Source: a virus
Length of the DNA stretch: 52,128 nucleotides
IMG/VR virus record: IMGVR_UViG_3300034101_005442
Coordinates: 1-52,128 of that record
Reading direction: 5' to 3' (one strand)
Shown piece by piece: positions 23,367 through 52,128 of the stretch. Position 1 is the stretch's first letter; each line of letters starts with the position of its first letter. The notes beneath the pieces were generated by a model. That model was not told where the DNA came from. It saw only the letters and a list, made by a program, of their open reading frames with translations, and did no database searches. The position numbers and the translations under genes were made by a program.

Positions 23367-24351
23367 GTCTAGTATTCTCTATATCTGAAAAAACCATATC
23401 TTCTACAAGTTGCTCAAATGATATTTTGGGTTGCCATCCTAAAATATTCTTGGCTTTTGTTGAGTCTCCTCTGCAAAACTCAACCTCCATTGGTCGGTAA
23501 AGATTATGGTCAATTTCTATATGATTCAAATAATTTAAATTAACACATTTAAAAGCATGCTCAAGAAAAGATTCAACAGTGTGAGAGTATCCTGTGCTAA
23601 TAACAAAATCATCAGGATTACCATGAGACAGCATTAACCTCATAGCAAGCACATAATCCTTGGCATGACCCCAATCTCTTACAACTTTAATATTTCCTAA
23701 TTTTAATTTTTCAGTTGTTTTTTTGTTAACTAGTTGGCCTATATACTTAGTAATTTTTCTAGTAACAAAATTTTCTCCGCGTCGTGGACTTTCGTGATTA
23801 AATAAAATACCACTAGTAGCATATAGCCCATAAGCTTCTCTGTATATTTGTATCATCCTATGACTAGATAATTTAGAAACAGCATATGGACTTTGTGGTA
23901 AAAATCCAGTATTTTCGTTTTGGTATTTTTCTCCATCATCATTTAAAATATAATTAGATCCAAACATTTCGCTTGTACTAGCTTGATAAAATCTAGTTGT
24001 TGATGAAAACTTTCTAATATTTTCTAATATATTAATTACTCCAATTGTATTAATTTCAAATGTTGTTGTTGGTTGTTTGAAGCTTGTAGCAACATGACTT
24101 TGTGCTGCCAAATTGTAAAAATGATGTGGTCTGTGTTTAGTTATAATGTCAACACAATCTGAAGGATCAGTAATATCAAATTCTTGCAATATTAATTTTT
24201 TATTATCAAGTAAATGTTTAATCCTTTGGAAATTAGAGTTACTGCTTCTTCTATATAATCCTACAATATTATATCCACTATTTATTAATAGTTCAGCTAA
24301 ATAACTTCCGTCCTGTCCAGTTATTCCTGTTATGGCTGCTGTTTTAGTCAT
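23359..24351 (-). CDS. gmd: GDP-mannose 4,6-dehydratase
   Basis: 330 residues, full length for the family. It converts GDP-mannose to GDP-4-keto-6-deoxymannose, the first step to GDP-fucose and related sugars, using bound NADP. The Rossmann loop is TGITGQDGSYL at 8-18; catalytic STSE at 125-128 (T126, E128), Y156 and K160 are all present; NHESPRRGENFVTRKI follows. It overlaps the HNH gene by eight bases and the upstream gene by four (ATGA), so it is an integral part of the packaging operon. It may alter host surface glycans or decorate the virion. Confidence 0.97.
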   Translation of the reverse strand: MTKTAAITGITGQDGSYLAELLINSGYNIVGLYRRSSNSNFQRIKHLLDNKKLILQEFDITDPSDCVDIITKHRPHHFYNLAAQSHVATSFKQPTTTFEINTIGVINILENIRKFSSTTRFYQASTSEMFGSNYILNDDGEKYQNENTGFLPQSPYAVSKLSSHRMIQIYREAYGLYATSGILFNHESPRRGENFVTRKITKYIGQLVNKKTTEKLKLGNIKVVRDWGHAKDYVLAMRLMLSHGNPDDFVISTGYSHTVESFLEHAFKCVNLNYLNHIEIDHNLYRPMEVEFCRGDSTKAKNILGWQPKISFEQLVEDMVFSDIENTRHE

Positions 24352-25160
24352 TGTATACTATCTGGTGTTAAAAATGGTTGATCTATAATACCATCTTGAT
24401 ATTGATGATATTCTTCTAATTTCTTTTTATTTTTTTCTGTTGCGATAGAGAGTATCTCCATTTCTCTACCTTCTTTTTCTCTGATGGTTTCGTCTTCTAA
24501 CATACGTATTAATCCTATCCAAGAACTTTTACCATCTTCTATTCTTTTTATTCTTTGCTCTCTGGTAGCTTTAAGGTCCTTGCTAATTTTTTGTTGTTCA
24601 TTTAATAATTTAGTATATTCATTTGTATAATTTGCTATGCTATTTCTTGCAAAACTTAATTGTGTCTCTAAGTTGGCTAATCTTGGTATATCTCTTTGAT
24701 CTTCTGGTTTTTCATATTCTTTGTCTACTAATTGTTGTAATTTATCAGTTTCGGCAATGTGTCTTTTTCTTTCTTTCATACTGCGATTAATAAGAATATC
24801 TATAGTGATAAATTGTTTAATCTGAAGTTCTTCTGCTGGTAAAACGTCTTCCCTAAACTGCTGGATTAGACCTATCCATGTATCTTCAAAATATGCTAAT
24901 TCTCCAGTATCACTATCAAATTGTCTAGTAATTTCGTGCCAAAAAGTTTTTGTATGTAATTTCCTTTTTAGTATCTCAAGGTCTTTAGCGTTCTCACTAG
25001 CTGTTATATTATTTTCTTTTATATATCTATTTATAGGATCAATATTTCTATTTAGATTTTCAGCTATTTCCTCAACAGATAGAACTATAATATTTTCTCT
25101 TATAAATTTTTCTTCTTCTAGACTTAGTTGTCCTCGTTTTTTGGGAATATTTCTTGACAT
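24348..25160 (-). CDS. HTH and coiled-coil protein, possible small terminase
   Basis: 270 residues. Residues 10-50 (LSLEEEKFIRENIIVLSVEEIAENLNRNIDPINRYIKEN) form a helix-turn-helix. Residues of about 130-250 are charged coiled coil. A DNA-binding head followed by an oligomerising coiled coil, upstream of the large terminase in one operon, fits a small terminase subunit, but four genes intervene and the sequence is not diagnostic. Two copies of SWIGLI/TWIGLI (near 93 and 217) suggest an internal repeat. It overlaps the sigma-like gene by 37 bases. Confidence 0.55.
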   Translation of the reverse strand: MSRNIPKKRGQLSLEEEKFIRENIIVLSVEEIAENLNRNIDPINRYIKENNITASENAKDLEILKRKLHTKTFWHEITRQFDSDTGELAYFEDTWIGLIQQFREDVLPAEELQIKQFITIDILINRSMKERKRHIAETDKLQQLVDKEYEKPEDQRDIPRLANLETQLSFARNSIANYTNEYTKLLNEQQKISKDLKATREQRIKRIEDGKSSWIGLIRMLEDETIREKEGREMEILSIATEKNKKKLEEYHQYQDGIIDQPFLTPDSIQ

Positions 25161-25762
25161 TTATCCTCTCCTATTATTAGCTCTATATGACTTTGTAATT
25201 TTTTAAGTTGCTGTTTAGGAATTTTTTCTCCGTGCTTAAGTCTTAAATAGCTTTCTCTAAATTCTGGTTCTATATTTTCGTCTAATAATTTTATTATCTC
25301 ATTATTCTGCATTTTAGAGTCAAAATTTTTATTATTACTAATATCATACTCTATATACGATGGTTGCATAATATTCTTTTTGGCAATATTTCGAGTTGCC
25401 CATGTGGAATATAAATCACAATCATCTTTGTTTGCATATTTAGAACATTGATTTTTTGAGACTTTATAGTTAGGATCGTATAGTGGACATGATAAACAAG
25501 GAATATCTGGTCTTTGATAGTTATTTCTTTTGTAATTAAACAATCTGTTTCTTACATGCGTCCATAAGAAATTTTCTAATGGTCTTGTATTATCATATTT
25601 TTCTAAACCTTCCAAAGCAAAAATAGCCGCTTGCTGTTTCATATCTTCAATATCGTGATATCCAAAACGAAATTTATGGGCTAGTCTTTTGCCTATATTA
25701 TCTAATACTCTTAAAAAATCTTCTTCTGAAACTTTATTATCTATTTTTTTCTTTTTGCTCAT
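25124..25762 (-). CDS. Sigma-70 region 2-like protein with Cys4 insertion
   Basis: 212 residues. HDIEDMKQQAAIFALEGLEKYD, then PLENFLWTHVRNRLFNYKR at 36-80, is the pattern of sigma region 2 (DIEDLxQEgxigLxxAxxkYD, FxxYaxxxIRnrixdyxR). A four-Cys cluster follows (C89, C92, C106, C115), probably a zinc knuckle. Region 4 is not evident; the C-terminus (EPEFRESYLRLKHGE) could be a shortened version. This resembles phage late sigma factors of the T4 gp55 type. It is a good candidate for the factor reading the GTGTATA motifs in this window. Confidence 0.65.
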   Translation of the reverse strand: MSKKKKIDNKVSEEDFLRVLDNIGKRLAHKFRFGYHDIEDMKQQAAIFALEGLEKYDNTRPLENFLWTHVRNRLFNYKRNNYQRPDIPCLSCPLYDPNYKVSKNQCSKYANKDDCDLYSTWATRNIAKKNIMQPSYIEYDISNNKNFDSKMQNNEIIKLLDENIEPEFRESYLRLKHGEKIPKQQLKKLQSHIELIIGEDKCQEIFPKNEDN

Positions 25763-25979: not shown

Positions 25980-26216
25980 ATGGCTAATTATAAAAAATGG
26001 TCAAATGTAGAATTAGATTTTATTCAAAGTAATCATGGTATACTATGTGATGAGGCTTTAGCGTCAAAGCTAAGTCAAATGACAGGACAAAATATAAGCA
26101 CCGCTATGGTTCGTCGCCAAAGACGCAAACTTTCTCTGAAAAAGAGCAGAGGCCGTCCAAAGAAGATAATTTCAACCAACACTGTGCCAGTATCAAATGA
26201 TGTGGTAGAAGCATGA
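25980..26216 (+). CDS. HTH/AT-hook DNA-binding protein
   Basis: 78 residues. WSNVELDFIQSNHGILCDEALASKLSQ forms a Myb/SANT-like or helix-turn-helix unit; ISTAMVRRQRRKLSLKKSRGRPKK adds a basic segment with an AT-hook (RGRPKK at about 59-64). A DNA-binding regulator is likely. It is read rightward, opposite to almost everything else in the left 49 kb, from a region holding a palindromic operator. A ribosome site AAAGGA precedes the start. It overlaps the secreted protein gene by four bases (ATGA). Confidence 0.75.
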   Translation: MANYKKWSNVELDFIQSNHGILCDEALASKLSQMTGQNISTAMVRRQRRKLSLKKSRGRPKKIISTNTVPVSNDVVEA

Positions 26217-49009: not shown

Positions 49010-49371
49010 AATTATAAATGAAAATGTGTTGCTGTTAGGCTCTTGTCTCTTGGGAATAGAAACACAAGATCTAGAAACATGATAAATAATGGGGTAAATA
49101 GGGGAGTTTAGGTGATACATTTTGATTTATTGAGTGCTTATTGTGTTTGGATGTCCTTGGGGTTTTGAGAAAAATCTGGAAATGATCGATAAAAACAGAA
49201 AAACCCCCTCTTATGTTTTACGGTTATTCTACCCCGCAAATTTGACGTAAAGCCTTACGAGATAATGACTTACAACGAGGGAGCATAGCAAATGGTGTGC
49301 CAAAGAATAATATATTTTATGGTATGGTATTTGCTCATGAAAAAAATCTCAAAAAAAACATTTGTACACTA
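49010..49371. other. Intergenic divergence region with degenerate cassette block
   Basis: Non-coding gap between the leftward cluster and the rightward array. It holds a leftward GTGTATA start (49003) and, from 49242 to about 49335, a degenerate copy of the block seen at 49963, 50989 and 51829 (TTGACGTAAAGCCTTACGAG, then GCATAGCAAATGG, GAATAATATATTTTATGG). The remaining bases, including GGGGTTTT near 49158 and AAAACCCC near 49200 that could pair, show no gene. The base composition changes here from A+T rich to roughly balanced. Confidence 0.7.
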
Positions 49372-49399
49372 TTGACGCCTAAAGAATCTTTGGTATAAT
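49372..49399 (+). promoter_or_regulatory. Sigma-70 type promoter P1
   Basis: TTGACG at 49372-49377, 16 bases, TATAAT at 49394-49399, followed by GTCGATA. It precedes the 49446 gene by 46 bases. Confidence 0.85.
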
Positions 49400-49445
49400 G
49401 TCGATATAAGAAGTAAGAGAGAAAAAGAAAAAAAAGGAAAAGAAC

Positions 49446-49613
49446 ATGACATACTTCATTCAGATTTTCGATGCTTGGGATTGTGAGTTGGATTTCATCG
49501 GCCCGTTCAACACTGAGAACGAAGCACATGAGGCCGGTTGGAGCAAGTGGGAAGGTGACGATAACGCCTATGGTAGCCGAATCATCAAAAGGCTTCCCGC
49601 TTCGACTCACTGA
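49446..49613 (+). CDS. Small protein, paralogue of 50214 gene
   Basis: 55 residues (MTYFIQIFDAWDCELDFIGP, then FNTENEAHEAGWSKWEGDD and IIKRLPASTH). About 65% identical by eye to the 54-residue gene at 50214. The pattern suggests a compact alpha/beta domain with a conserved Trp, Cys and acidic residues. The ribosome site is GGAAAAGAAC. Transcribed from P1. Probably an early protein that alters a host function; family unknown. Short size means it is easily missed by gene finders. Confidence 0.75.
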   Translation: MTYFIQIFDAWDCELDFIGPFNTENEAHEAGWSKWEGDDNAYGSRIIKRLPASTH

Positions 49614-49631
49614 AAAATATTCTCTAAGGGC

Positions 49632-49660
49632 TTGACGAACGATTGCCGATAACGTACACT
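49632..49660 (+). promoter_or_regulatory. Sigma-70 type promoter P2
   Basis: TTGACG at 49632-49637, 17 bases, TACACT at 49655-49660. The spacer contains GATTGCCGATAA, which is also in P4. It precedes the acidic protein gene by 30 bases. Confidence 0.75.
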
Positions 49661-49690
49661 AGAATCATCACAAGGAAAAAGGAAAGAATC

Positions 49691-49933
49691 ATGAGCAACG
49701 ATTTTATCTACGACATGAGCGAAATCAACGAAGAGAACATGTTCAAGGCTTGGGAAGAAATGGTAGCCGAAGATGGTAGCATCTGGGAAACGGGATACGA
49801 TGATGATACCGATTACATTCCGGGCCTTGACGATGGCGAAGGATACGACCCGATCATGGGCGATGGCGAAGGATTCGATGAAACGGACGATGGATGGCTG
49901 GACGATTTCCAGGGCGAAGAGGATTTTGCCTAG
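49691..49933 (+). CDS. Highly acidic small protein
   Basis: 80 residues from the ATG at 49691, chosen for the GGAAAAAGGAAAG ribosome site; an earlier in-frame start at 49643 would lie inside the P2 promoter. 29 of 80 residues are Asp or Glu, with one Lys and no Arg, so the net charge is near -28. DDDTDYIPGLDDGEGYD and GDGEGFDETDDGWLDD are near repeats, like EF-hand or DNA-mimic stretches. Early phage DNA mimics (Ocr, Arn, DMP classes) are acidic like this, but no family is recognised. Confidence 0.7.
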   Translation: MSNDFIYDMSEINEENMFKAWEEMVAEDGSIWETGYDDDTDYIPGLDDGEGYDPIMGDGEGFDETDDGWLDDFQGEEDFA

Positions 49934-49942
49934 GGGATACAT

Positions 49943-49956
49943 CCCCCACTAGGGGG
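49943..49956 (+). other. Stem-loop after acidic gene
   Basis: CCCCC-ACTA-GGGGG directly after the stop codon at 49931-49933. No T run follows, so it is not a standard terminator. Similar stem-loops at 50970-50981 (CCCC-ACTA-GGGG) and 51395-51410 occur at other gene ends in this array. Confidence 0.6.
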
Positions 49957-49962
49957 AAAGGC

Positions 49963-50135
49963 TTGACGTAAACCCTTGCTACATAAGCACTTACGTCAAA
50001 TTTTCGGCCGAAAAATCGTCGTAAACCCTTATGCCACAACGACTTACATCAAATGCCCACAGCAAATGCTATGCCGAAAATAATATATTCTATGGTATGA
50101 TATTTGCTGAACATAACCTTACGATATTGTAAGGA
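49963..50135. repeat. Multi-palindrome intergenic block, copy B
   Basis: Elements in order: GACGTAA...TTACGTC inverted pair around TGCT...AGCA; TTTTCGGCCGAAAA palindrome; a second degenerate CGTCGTAAACCC...CTTACATC pair; GCAAATGCTATGCC; GAATA-type palindrome; TATGGTATGATATTTGCT; CCTTACGATATTGTAAGG (50118-50135), eight of nine bases pairing. It sits between the acidic gene and promoter P3. The same order occurs at 50989 and 51829. Confidence 0.9.
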
Positions 50136-50146
50136 AACTTTTTTGT

Positions 50147-50174
50147 TGACGATTCAAGATACCATGGTATAATG
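50147..50174 (+). promoter_or_regulatory. Sigma-70 type promoter P3
   Basis: TTGACG at 50147-50152, 16 bases, TATAAT at 50169-50174, followed by GTCGATA. It lies immediately after the CCTTACGATATTGTAAGG palindrome, which could be an operator or a weak terminator. Confidence 0.85.
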
Positions 50175-50213
50175 TCGATATAAAGAGAAAAGGAAAAGAA
50201 AAAGGAAAATAAA

Positions 50214-50378
50214 ATGACATACTTTGCTCAAATCGTAGACGCTTGGGATTGTGAACTAGACTTCCTTGGCCCATTCTATACTGAGGAACAGGCGACCGCC
50301 GCCGCTTTCGACAAGTGGGACGGTGAGGATGGATGTAGGGTAAATATCATCAAAAGACTTCCGGCTTTTTCTCACTGA
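50214..50378 (+). CDS. Small protein, paralogue of 49446 gene
   Basis: 54 residues (MTYFAQIVDAWDCELDFLGP, FYTEEQATAAAFDKWDGEDG, IIKRLPAFSH). MTYFxQIxDAWDCELDFxGPFxTE and IIKRLPA are shared with the 49446 protein. Both sit under a promoter with the same layout, so the cassette (promoter, gene) was probably duplicated. Ribosome site AAGGAAAA. Function unknown; conserved Trp, Cys and acidic residues are candidates for a binding surface. Confidence 0.75.
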   Translation: MTYFAQIVDAWDCELDFLGPFYTEEQATAAAFDKWDGEDGCRVNIIKRLPAFSH

Positions 50379-50398
50379 AAAAATATTTTCTAGTGGGG

Positions 50399-50426
50399 TT
50401 GACGTAGGATTGCCGATAAGTATACT
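50399..50426 (+). promoter_or_regulatory. Sigma-70 type promoter P4
   Basis: TTGACG at 50399-50404, 16 bases, TATACT at 50421-50426. It is 17 bases from the start codon at 50444, leaving room only for a very short leader. Confidence 0.75.
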
Positions 50427-50443
50427 AGGGAAAAGGAAAAGAA

Positions 50444-50638
50444 ATGACACTGAATACAGAAATCTCGACGAGTTATGATGGTAAGCGGTATACGGGCTTG
50501 GTTGTGGAAATCAAGATGGTACAGAATCGTGAGTTGATCACGATCATGATTGAAGATGATTCGCGGAATGATGGCATAGGGTATCGTAGCCTTTATGCCG
50601 ATAAGATGAGCGAAACATCCGAAAACCTTTTCGCATAA
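50444..50638 (+). CDS. Small protein, paralogue of 51209 gene
   Basis: 64 residues. SYDGKRYTGLVVEIKMVQNR, then ITIMIEDDS, GIGYRSLYADKMSE. It aligns with the 51209 protein through YxxGxxxTGxxVxVxxxxxNR, the hydrophobic ITI/FTI stretch, and GYRS(L/M)Y(A/T)DK. The fold looks like a small SH3-type barrel. Ribosome site AAAAGGAAAAG. Followed after eight bases by the 50647 gene, probably co-transcribed. Confidence 0.7.
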   Translation: MTLNTEISTSYDGKRYTGLVVEIKMVQNRELITIMIEDDSRNDGIGYRSLYADKMSETSENLFA

Positions 50639-50646
50639 GGAAAAAA

Positions 50647-50967
50647 ATGAATAGTTTTGCAAGATTAAATCGTATTGGAATGGAATCGAATGCTACTAAA
50701 AATAAGGTAAGATACTTGCGTGAAAAATATAATCTTGGATATGATATGCAACCCAAGGAAAAAACAATGTCCGTTTCCGAAATGATTTGCAAACTAGAAT
50801 CCCATGGATTGATCGTGCAGCGGTTGGAGCACGATAATGGTACGCTACACGTTGACGGCTATCATCCTCCCCATTGTAAGGGGCTGCCCGATTGGCTGTA
50901 TGATTGCCCCGGTTGGGGGGTATCGTCATGCGGGGCTTCTAGGGTTTTCATGTTCAAGGTGGGCTAA
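50647..50967 (+). CDS. Small protein with Cys/His C-terminus, unknown
   Basis: 106 residues. A basic helical N-terminus (NSFARLNRIGMESNATKNKV), a middle segment VSEMICKLESHGLIVQRLEHD resembling a helix, and a C-terminal part with YHPPHCKGLPDWLYDCPGWG. The His and Cys could bind a metal. It follows the 50444 gene and a GGAAAAAA ribosome site, with a CCCC-ACTA-GGGG stem-loop after its stop. Function unknown; likely an early protein. Confidence 0.6.
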   Translation: MNSFARLNRIGMESNATKNKVRYLREKYNLGYDMQPKEKTMSVSEMICKLESHGLIVQRLEHDNGTLHVDGYHPPHCKGLPDWLYDCPGWGVSSCGASRVFMFKVG

Positions 50968-50988
50968 CCCCCCACTAGGGGTACACAC

Positions 50989-51118
50989 TCGACGTAAACC
51001 CTTGCTGTATAAGCACTTACGTCAAATTTTCGGCCGCAAAATCGTCGTAAACCCTTATGGCATAACGACTTACGACGAATCGACATAGCAAACGATATGC
51101 CAAAGAATAATATATTCT
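50989..51118. repeat. Multi-palindrome intergenic block, copy C
   Basis: GACGTAAACCCTTGCT...AGCACTTACGTC, TTTTCGGCCGCAAAA, a second CGTCGTAAACCC...CTTACGACG pair, then GCAAACGATATGCC and GAATAATATATTC. Unlike copies B and D, the TATGGTATAATATTTGCT and CCTTACGATATTGTAAGG parts are replaced by an A-rich stretch before promoter P5. Confidence 0.9.
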
Positions 51119-51150
51119 CTGAAAAAAATAAAAAAAATAAAAGATTTTGC

Positions 51151-51178
51151 TTGCAACCTAAAGATGAGCCTGTATAAT
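51151..51178 (+). promoter_or_regulatory. Sigma-70 type promoter P5
   Basis: TTGCAA at 51151-51156, 16 bases, TATAAT at 51173-51178, followed by GCCGATA. It precedes the 51209 gene by 30 bases. Confidence 0.8.
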
Positions 51179-51208
51179 GCCGATATAGAAAGAACAGGAG
51201 AAAGAAAA

Positions 51209-51406
51209 ATGGAAATGAAAATCGGAAACGTTGCCAAGGTCGAATATGCTACGGGTGAGAAGTTTACGGGTGAAATCGTAAAGGTTCGCACCATGTCCGA
51301 CAATCGTATTCTGTTCACGATCCACGATGAAACCGTAGGGTATCGTTCGATGTATACCGACAAGTGTGTGTCTCTGGAAACGCTGGAACTACAGCCCCTT
51401 GATTGA
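51209..51406 (+). CDS. Small protein, paralogue of 50444 gene
   Basis: 65 residues from the ATG at 51209, supported by an AGGAG ribosome site; an earlier frame start at 51164 would lie in the promoter. MEMKIGNVAKVEYATGEKFT, then GEIVKVRTMSDNR, ILFTIHDE, VGYRSMYTDK. Shares TG(x)IVxVRTxxxNR and GYRSMYxDK with the 50444 protein. Likely a small beta barrel (SH3-like) with unknown target. A C4-G4 stem-loop spans its stop codon. Confidence 0.7.
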   Translation: MEMKIGNVAKVEYATGEKFTGEIVKVRTMSDNRILFTIHDETVGYRSMYTDKCVSLETLELQPLD

Positions 51407-51411
51407 GGGGG

Positions 51412-51440
51412 TTGTGCCTATAAAAAAAGTTTGCTACACT
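51412..51440 (+). promoter_or_regulatory. Sigma-70 type promoter P6
   Basis: TTGTGC at 51412-51417, 17 bases, TACACT at 51435-51440. It is the weakest match of the array, 32 bases before the 51473 gene. Confidence 0.6.
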
Positions 51441-51472
51441 ACATCATCATCCCAACCCATAGGAAAACAACA

Positions 51473-51799
51473 ATGACCACTAGCCCTATCCTTCGTGAGT
51501 TTCGCCGCGGCATCATCAACTGGTTTGAGGGTATCGCAATCCCTCACCAGCCTAGCGTTGCCGATGGTGTGTATACGCCGATTCGCAGCGAAAAGGTGAT
51601 GAAGTTCAATCGTAAGGCTCTCCGCCAAATCGGAAAGGCTAAGGCTGAAAAGGTTGATCCCCGCTATAGTGGGGGTGATGATCGTATGATCGTAAAGGTT
51701 GGAAAGCCCGGCTCGGCTGAACGTAAGGCAGCATTAGCAGAACAGTATGCCGCTATTCTCGCCTGCGGAGAGGAAGTATCCCCCTTTTCGGAGGGGTAA
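51473..51799 (+). CDS. Small basic protein, unknown
   Basis: 108 residues from the ATG at 51473, with AGGAAAAC upstream. ILREFRRGIINWFEGIAIPH, VMKFNRKALRQIGKAKAEKV, AALAEQYAAILACGEE. Basic and mainly helical, with two charged segments (FNRKALRQIGKAKAEK and GSAERKAALAEQ) that could bind nucleic acid. It is the last complete gene before block copy D. Function unknown; likely an early phage protein. Confidence 0.6.
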   Translation: MTTSPILREFRRGIINWFEGIAIPHQPSVADGVYTPIRSEKVMKFNRKALRQIGKAKAEKVDPRYSGGDDRMIVKVGKPGSAERKAALAEQYAAILACGEEVSPFSEG

Positions 51800-51828
51800 G
51801 GGTATATACCCCCATTAGTGGCACACAC

Positions 51829-52000
51829 TTGACGTAAACCCTTGCTGCATAAGCACTTACGTCAAATTTTCGGCCGCAAAATCGTCGTAAACCCTTACTG
51901 TATAAGCACTTACGTCGAATGACTATAGCAAACGATATGCCGAAGAATAACTTATTCTATGGTATAATATTTGCTCTAGGAAACCTTACGATATTGTAAG
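51829..52000. repeat. Multi-palindrome intergenic block, copy D
   Basis: The most complete copy: GACGTAAACCCTTGCT...AGCACTTACGTC twice, TTTTCGGCCGCAAAA between them, GCAAACGATATGCC, GAATAACTTATTC, TATGGTATAATATTTGCT, and CCTTACGATATTGTAAG (51984-52000). A nine-T run follows the last palindrome before promoter P7. It thus could act as a terminator for the 51473 gene as well as an operator. Confidence 0.9.
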
Positions 52001-52011
52001 TTTTTTTTTGC

Positions 52012-52039
52012 TTGCAATCTAAAGAATGGTCTGTATAAT
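52012..52039 (+). promoter_or_regulatory. Sigma-70 type promoter P7
   Basis: TTGCAA at 52012-52017, 16 bases, TATAAT at 52034-52039, then GTCGATA. It precedes a gene that continues past the window. Confidence 0.85.
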
Positions 52040-52072
52040 GTCGATAGATAAGAAAGAAAGAGAGAAAGAGAA

Positions 52073-52128
52073 ATGAACAGCCTCGATAAGATTCTGGCAT
52101 CTATGCGGTCTGGCAAGTATGGTAGCGT
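52073..52128 (+). CDS. Partial small gene at window edge
   Basis: Begins MNSLDKILASMRSGKYGS and is cut by the window edge. A GAAAGAGAGAAAGAG ribosome region and promoter P7 lie upstream. The opening resembles MNSFARL of the 50647 gene, but too little is visible to call a paralogue. Confidence 0.6.
   Translation, partial: MNSLDKILASMRSGKYGS

What the first reader, a model, noticed from the sequence alone, without database searches (positions are those of the whole stretch)
49372..52128. Early-like array of micro-gene cassettes
In 2.8 kb there are seven complete or partial rightward genes, most with their own promoter: TTGACG or TTGCAA, 16 bases, TATAAT(GYCGATA) four times, and three related promoters. 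Each cassette is promoter, small gene, C4-5/G4-5 stem-loop at the stop, then a multi-palindrome block. Small paralogous proteins occur in pairs. This is similar in logic to early regions of large phages, but the intergenic block is one I cannot place in any known system.
Basis: seen in the sequence. Interest (0 to 1): 0.8.

Follow-up and report, generated by a model that had tools for sequence, protein, structure and literature searches.

The report
Phage early-gene cassettes with swappable switches
The right end of this contig is the start of the early region of a large, probably strictly lytic freshwater phage: a shuffled set of tiny genes, each batch driven by its own strong promoter behind a stack of precisely spaced protein-binding sites, and related phages have replaced one type of site at every early promoter at once, which points to a whole early gene programme changing its controlling factor.

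Summary
From 49,372 to the contig end there are four near-identical sigma70-type promoters (TTGACG/TTGCAA-16-TATAATGYCGATA), seven complete and one partial small rightward genes, paralogous pairs, and a 150-190 bp block before each promoter. It is not an artefact: the promoter recurs in 115 stretches of IMG/VR, in arrays of 5-8 kb, one per 120-230 kb phage genome, where late leftward genes meet early rightward genes. I resolved the block into site layers. (1) A pair of dyads around a GC core, exactly 53 bp apart (type A, as here) or 29 bp apart (type G, other genomes). These pairs precede most early promoters over about 20 kb and are confined to that region. Each genome uses A or G, not both, and orthologous genes carry A in one lineage and G in the other. 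(2) One to four TTTGGCAYRNNATTTGC units, with the geometry of sigma54 -24/-12 promoters but in either orientation. (3) Mutually exclusive promoter-proximal palindromes C or D at fixed distances. Little or no base-pair covariation was found, so the paired dyads look like DNA operators rather than RNA hairpins. Best reading: composite early promoters under trans-acting regulators, in shufflable cassettes. Regulators and host are unidentified; repression versus activation is untested.

The parts
49092..49210 (.). junction element between leftward late genes and the rightward array (GGTGATAC..GAGTGCTTATTGTGTTTGGATGTCC..AAAAACCCCCT)
   Evidence: aligned with the array starts of six other contigs; AAAAACCCCC invariant
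49246..49274 (+). block 1: A-type dyad (first block of the array; upstream partner degenerate)
49288..49334 (.). block 1: B units, leftward 49288-49302 (TGGCACACCATTTGC) and rightward 49320-49334 (TGGTATGGTATTTGC)
49372..49406 (+). promoter 1: TTGACG-16-TATAATGTCGATA
49446..49613 (+). small gene, family F26 (55 aa; paralogue of 50214)
49632..49660 (+). weaker promoter-like site with GCCGATA in the spacer
49691..49933 (+). small acidic gene, family F0 (80 aa), 62 distinct homologues in related contigs
49943..49956 (+). C5/G5 stem-loop after the stop codon
49967..50048 (.). block 2: paired A dyads (49967 and 50020, spacing 53 bp) around a GC core
50062..50107 (.). block 2: B units, leftward (one mismatch) 50062-50076 and rightward 50093-50107
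   Evidence: for the rightward unit; leftward read from the sequence
50117..50134 (.). block 2: C palindrome CCTTACGATATTGTAAGG
50146..50180 (+). promoter 2: TTGACG-16-TATAATGTCGATA
50214..50378 (+). small gene, family F26 (54 aa)
50399..50426 (+). weaker promoter TTGACG-16-TATACT with GCCGATA in the spacer
50444..50638 (+). small gene, family F1 (64 aa)
50647..50967 (+). small gene, family F13 (106 aa)
50968..50981 (+). C6/G4 stem-loop at the stop codon
50993..51074 (.). block 3: paired A dyads (50993 and 51046, spacing 53 bp) around a GC core
51088..51102 (-). block 3: single leftward B unit (TGGCATATCGTTTGC)
51151..51185 (+). promoter 3: TTGCAA-16-TATAATGCCGATA
51209..51406 (+). small gene, family F1 (65 aa), predicted Sm/SH3-like barrel
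51473..51799 (+). small gene, family F2 (108 aa), 56 distinct homologues
51833..51914 (.). block 4: paired A dyads (51833 and 51886, spacing 53 bp) around a GC core
51928..51974 (.). block 4: B units, leftward (one mismatch) 51928-51942 and rightward 51960-51974
   Evidence: for the rightward unit; leftward read from the sequence
51984..52000 (.). block 4: C palindrome CCTTACGATATTGTAAG
52012..52046 (+). promoter 4: TTGCAA-16-TATAATGTCGATA
52073..52128 (+). partial gene MNSLDKILASMRSGKYGS.., resembling family F7, cut by the contig end
   Evidence: read (MNSLDKI..SMRTGKYGS in L004 and G011)

Best explanation
This is the left end of the early region of a large, probably strictly lytic tailed phage. 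Small host-interaction genes, one to three per cassette, are driven by a strong host-sigma70-type promoter. Upstream of each promoter lies a stack of DNA operators: a pair of dyads around a GC core (type A here), then B units, then a promoter-proximal palindrome (C or D). Host RNA polymerase would read the promoters directly after injection; trans-acting DNA-binding regulators then bind the paired dyads and the proximal palindromes cooperatively on fixed helical faces and set the level or the shut-off of the whole early set together. Because promoter and operators are repeated at each cassette, cassettes can be gained, lost and shuffled without losing control. Shown: the layers, the exact spacings, the restriction of the paired dyads to the early region, the one-type-per-genome rule and the swap between A and G at orthologous promoters. 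Inferred: that they are protein operators, that the control is mainly negative, and the early timing. Regulators and host are not identified.
For: Promoter and blocks recur in 115 viral stretches, 207 promoters, 124 non-redundant. Spacing: A pairs 486 at 53 bp against 13 at the next spacing (copies in overlapping loci counted); G pairs 123 at 29 bp against 13. C starts 28 bp upstream of the -35 in 30 of 38; D 38 bp upstream in 30 of 31; never both. Paired dyads are confined to about 20 kb of 200-230 kb genomes, with no G in A genomes and at most 2 stray A-like hits in G genomes at 3 mismatches. Orthologous early genes carry A in G005/G020 and G in G011/G021/G015, for example those at G005 173797, 175822, 177514, 179556. 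Arms vary almost independently, as expected of DNA half-sites. Gene families recur in different orders. No integrase family hit in 12 records.
Against: No regulator whose presence follows the A or G type was found among genome-specific proteins; the conserved HTH-type genes beside the array do not differ by type. Paired dyads sit upstream of the promoters, which also suits activators or insulation. No transcript data. The control direction is a guess.
Confidence: 0.6

Rival explanations
1. The B units are true sigma54 (-24/-12) promoters or closed-complex sites of host sigma54 polymerase, so the early genes have dual sigma70/sigma54 control, with the paired dyads as enhancer sites of a host activator.
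For: TGGCA-N6-TTGC occurs 131 times against at most 2 for any other spacing from 0 to 24; the positions after TGGCA are strictly Y then R, and the logo TTTGGCAYRNNATTTGCT is the textbook sigma54 consensus (consensus from my own knowledge).
Against: Units face away from the gene at least as often as towards it: of 124 blocks, 29 hold one leftward unit only and 18 one rightward unit only. Paired dyads also stand before promoters without B. No sigma54 gene in the phages, only weak hits to the activator domain. Host unknown.
Confidence: 0.22
2. The dyads act as RNA: tandem hairpins or terminators that insulate cassettes, as in promoter-stem-loop (PeSL) elements of T4-type phages.
For: Every layer can fold as a hairpin; C is followed by a T run in block 2; T-rich stretches follow many G and A pairs; C4-G4 stems are enriched in the array.
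Against: Base pairs in A and G arms are no commoner than in shuffles at almost all positions, apart from small excesses at three outer positions of A1; a fixed non-complementary bulge is kept in A; spacings are exact to one base; terminator-like sites do not exceed shuffles (2 found, 3.0 expected).
Confidence: 0.15
3. The blocks are replication-origin or partition-type sites clustered at the origin.
For: GC skew changes sign at the array in G005 and G011 and the sites cluster in about 20 kb.
Against: Gene direction changes at the same point; the blocks are tied one by one to promoters at fixed distances.
Confidence: 0.07
4. Assembly artefact or piece of another replicon.
For: The contig ends inside the repeats, and G+C jumps from 0.33 to 0.43.
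Against: An independent contig holds the same array and the junction aligns with six contigs.
Confidence: 0.02

Closest known systems
PeSL (promoter early stem-loop) cassettes of T4-type phages (Arbiol 2010, Comeau 2014; known here only through citing papers PMC4503421 and PMC4177764, and from memory)
   Same: repeated host-like early promoters with stem-loops between small genes in hypervariable regions, thought to mediate cassette shuffling
   Different: here the block is several times longer and holds three layers of operator-like sites with exact spacings and no clear RNA covariation; the terminator part is weak; kinship with T4 was not shown by the tests made here
Operator/stoperator systems of cluster A mycobacteriophages (PMC6550527)
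   Same: 20-30 sites per genome for one regulator, site sequence differing between related phages across the whole genome
   Different: those sites are short, asymmetric, mostly not at promoters and belong to temperate phages with a known repressor; here they are symmetric pairs at promoters in phages without a detected integrase or repressor
sigma54-dependent promoters
   Same: B units have GG-N10-GC spacing and the full TGGCAYR-N4-TTGC consensus
   Different: either orientation, clustered up to four, next to a sigma70-type promoter; no activator identified
Integron cassette arrays
   Same: small genes separated by palindromic blocks
   Different: own promoter per cassette; no RYYYAAC...GTTRRRY core in any block

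Membership tests
PeSL elements | strong host-like early promoter repeated between small genes | tested here: met
PeSL elements | stem-loop terminator joined to each promoter | tested here: inconclusive
   stem-loops present but terminator-like sites not above shuffles
PeSL elements | located in a T4-type phage | tested here: inconclusive
   terminase nearest to Bacillus phages and Microcystis phage MaeS at about 25% identity, PHROG terminase families only; rII-like genes seen by eye
PeSL elements | cassette shuffling between relatives | tested here: met
   same families in different orders in 14 arrays
sigma54 promoters | GG-N10-GC with TGGCAYR and TTGC | tested here: met
sigma54 promoters | oriented towards the gene it drives | tested here: not met
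   both orientations, often away from the gene
sigma54 promoters | enhancer-binding activator and RpoN in host or phage | tested here: inconclusive
   none clear in phage records; host unknown
mycobacteriophage stoperators | many sites per genome with a lineage-specific sequence | tested here: met
mycobacteriophage stoperators | temperate phage with integration or partition genes and repressor | tested here: inconclusive
   no integrase family hit in 12 records; repressor not searched for exhaustively
integron attC arrays | RYYYAAC / GTTRRRY core sites in each block | tested here: not met
   0 of 266 A and 0 of 44 G blocks

The most novel reading that the evidence does not exclude
Lytic phages run their whole early programme from one set of paired operators, and related lineages have switched the operator sequence at some 15-20 promoters in concert (A, G and possibly further types). 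If the regulator is phage-encoded, this would be a specificity system that lets co-infecting relatives shut off or ignore each other's early genes: a heteroimmunity-like competition without lysogeny.
Probability: 0.2. Interest if true: 0.85.

Novelty: new variant of a known kind. Interest (0 to 1): 0.6.

Why it matters
It gives a natural, replicated example of a complete regulon changing its operator type between close relatives while genes and core promoters stay, and a map of where small host-takeover genes of a widespread uncultured phage group lie. The sigma54-like units raise the testable question whether phages use the host's alternative polymerase early in infection.

Tried and rejected
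Near-identity search of phage records: no match; protein search of F2 in phages: none. PHROGs, Pfam and NCBIfam for array proteins: nothing significant. Proteins specific to A or G genomes: mostly tail, structural and small unknown proteins, no evident regulator; class-linked divergence along the genome is spread over several regions, so it does not point to one gene. Host from genome bins: only two hits, MAG contigs labelled Chitinophaga and Gammaproteobacteria, too few to use. Structure of F2: poor model. F1: small Sm/SH3-like barrel; the Rho inhibitor YaeO is among many equal matches, so no function is claimed. Integron reading rejected. RNA hairpin reading weakened. Paper searches found no description of this block; the two PeSL papers are not held.

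Full report
Check. There are seven complete genes and one cut by the contig end. Direct repeats of 153, 110 and 148 nt cover the blocks and one gene pair. Three dyad pairs at exactly 53 bp lie in the array, none in the rest of the window and none in 200 shuffles.

It is a family. One block pattern led to an independent contig, L004, with three more cassettes carrying this promoter. The promoter pattern found 115 stretches, giving 124 non-redundant promoters with enough upstream sequence. In 120-230 kb records the exact promoter occurs only in one stretch of 8 kb or less, and the arrays sit after the same leftward genes: terminase side, ERCC4 nuclease, HNH, a nucleotide-sugar enzyme, a D5-like HTH, a sigma-like protein, then a small HTH-like gene facing right. 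In the window that small gene lies at 25980, 23 kb from the array, with tail-type genes between; in L004 two other genes lie between. The junction itself aligns with other array starts. So the array is not chimeric, though its left neighbours vary.

Layers. Class I promoters (array) read TTG-N19-TATAATGTCGATATAA with a 16 bp spacer in 112 of 124. Further right, class II promoters read TTGACAAGCCGATA..TGTAGAAT, so the GYCGATA word sits after the -10 in one class and inside the spacer in the other. Upstream are the paired dyads, B units and C or D. C and D exclude each other and keep fixed distances. B units come singly, tandem, divergent or convergent, with preferred gaps, and are confined almost wholly to the arrays.

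Paired dyads. Type A half-sites are about CGTAANNNCTT, two per 29 bp dyad, two dyads 53 bp apart around a GGCC-rich core; type G is CTGCCAAAATGGCAG twice, 29 bp apart around a CG-centred core. Both blocks are symmetric as a whole. G005, G020 and G030 use A; G011, G015 and G021 use G; orthologous genes carry the type of their genome. Some contigs (L011, L044, L082, L112) seem to use pairs of C5-6/G5 stems around a similar core, a possible third type seen only in a few blocks. Most class II promoters in G011 and G005 have a pair directly upstream.

DNA or RNA. If the dyads were RNA stems, arms should co-vary. At nearly all positions they do not exceed shuffled pairing, some A2 positions fall below it, and three outer A1 positions show small excesses. 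The divergent B pairs show no excess either, except a slight one at one position. This favours DNA half-sites. Invariant positions cannot speak either way.

Mechanism. The strong promoters suit transcription by the host enzyme at once after entry. Fixed spacing of C, D and the pairs suggests bound regulators acting on polymerase or on each other. That one genome keeps one pair type over about 14-19 blocks, while relatives with clearly homologous early proteins keep another, is best explained by a trans factor whose specificity changed; homogenisation by recombination between blocks is the alternative for uniformity inside a genome but would not by itself keep the exact 53 or 29 bp. I found no gene that tracks the type. 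A host factor is possible if hosts differ.

Sigma54. The B geometry is exact and its variants are those known of sigma54 promoters (own knowledge). Orientation speaks against plain promoters. I leave it as a rival at about one in five.

Cassettes. Array genes of 14 arrays form 27 families of two or more members; the order differs between arrays and the commonest families (F0 acidic, F1 Sm/SH3-like, F2) recur in 13, 11 and 12 of the 14 arrays, with 62, 51 and 56 distinct homologues in the fetched contigs. This supports shuffling.

Limits. All relatives were found through sequence from this window, so phages with other promoters are missed. Counts at 53 and 29 bp include overlapping loci. Records may be incomplete, and completeness is not given. 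No host, no transcripts, no regulator. The freshwater origin is my reading of the metagenome numbers from memory, not a tool result.

Noticed in passing
window 49131-49160: Leftward-reading ACAATAAGCAC word just upstream of the first late gene, conserved in position in relatives; may be a late promoter. It occurs once in the window.
   Followed up: partly
window 25124-25762, 24348-25160, 25980-26216: A sigma70 region 2-like protein, a D5-like HTH protein and a small HTH/AT-hook-like protein form a conserved group that adjoins the array in relatives; candidates for phage transcription control.
   Followed up: partly
window 51209-51406 and 50444-50638: Family F1 folds as a small Sm/SH3-like barrel; the Rho inhibitor YaeO/Rof is one of many similar matches.
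   Followed up: partly
window 49691-49933: Family F0 proteins are very acidic (..DYIPGLDDGEGYDPIMGD..DDGWLDDFQGEEDFA); longer members in relatives carry a CC..CSQCGEHC zinc-like motif. DNA mimicry is conceivable but untested.
   Followed up: no
G021 (L183-L192): The early region runs over both ends of this 186,823-base record, so it is probably a circularly permuted, near-complete phage genome.
   Followed up: no
L011, L044, L082, L112: Pairs of C5-6/G5 stems around a GC core take the place of the A or G pairs: a possible third operator type.
   Followed up: partly
class II promoters of G005 and G011: The word GYCGATA lies inside the -35/-10 spacer in class II but after the -10 in class I promoters; it may be a further regulator site.
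   Followed up: partly
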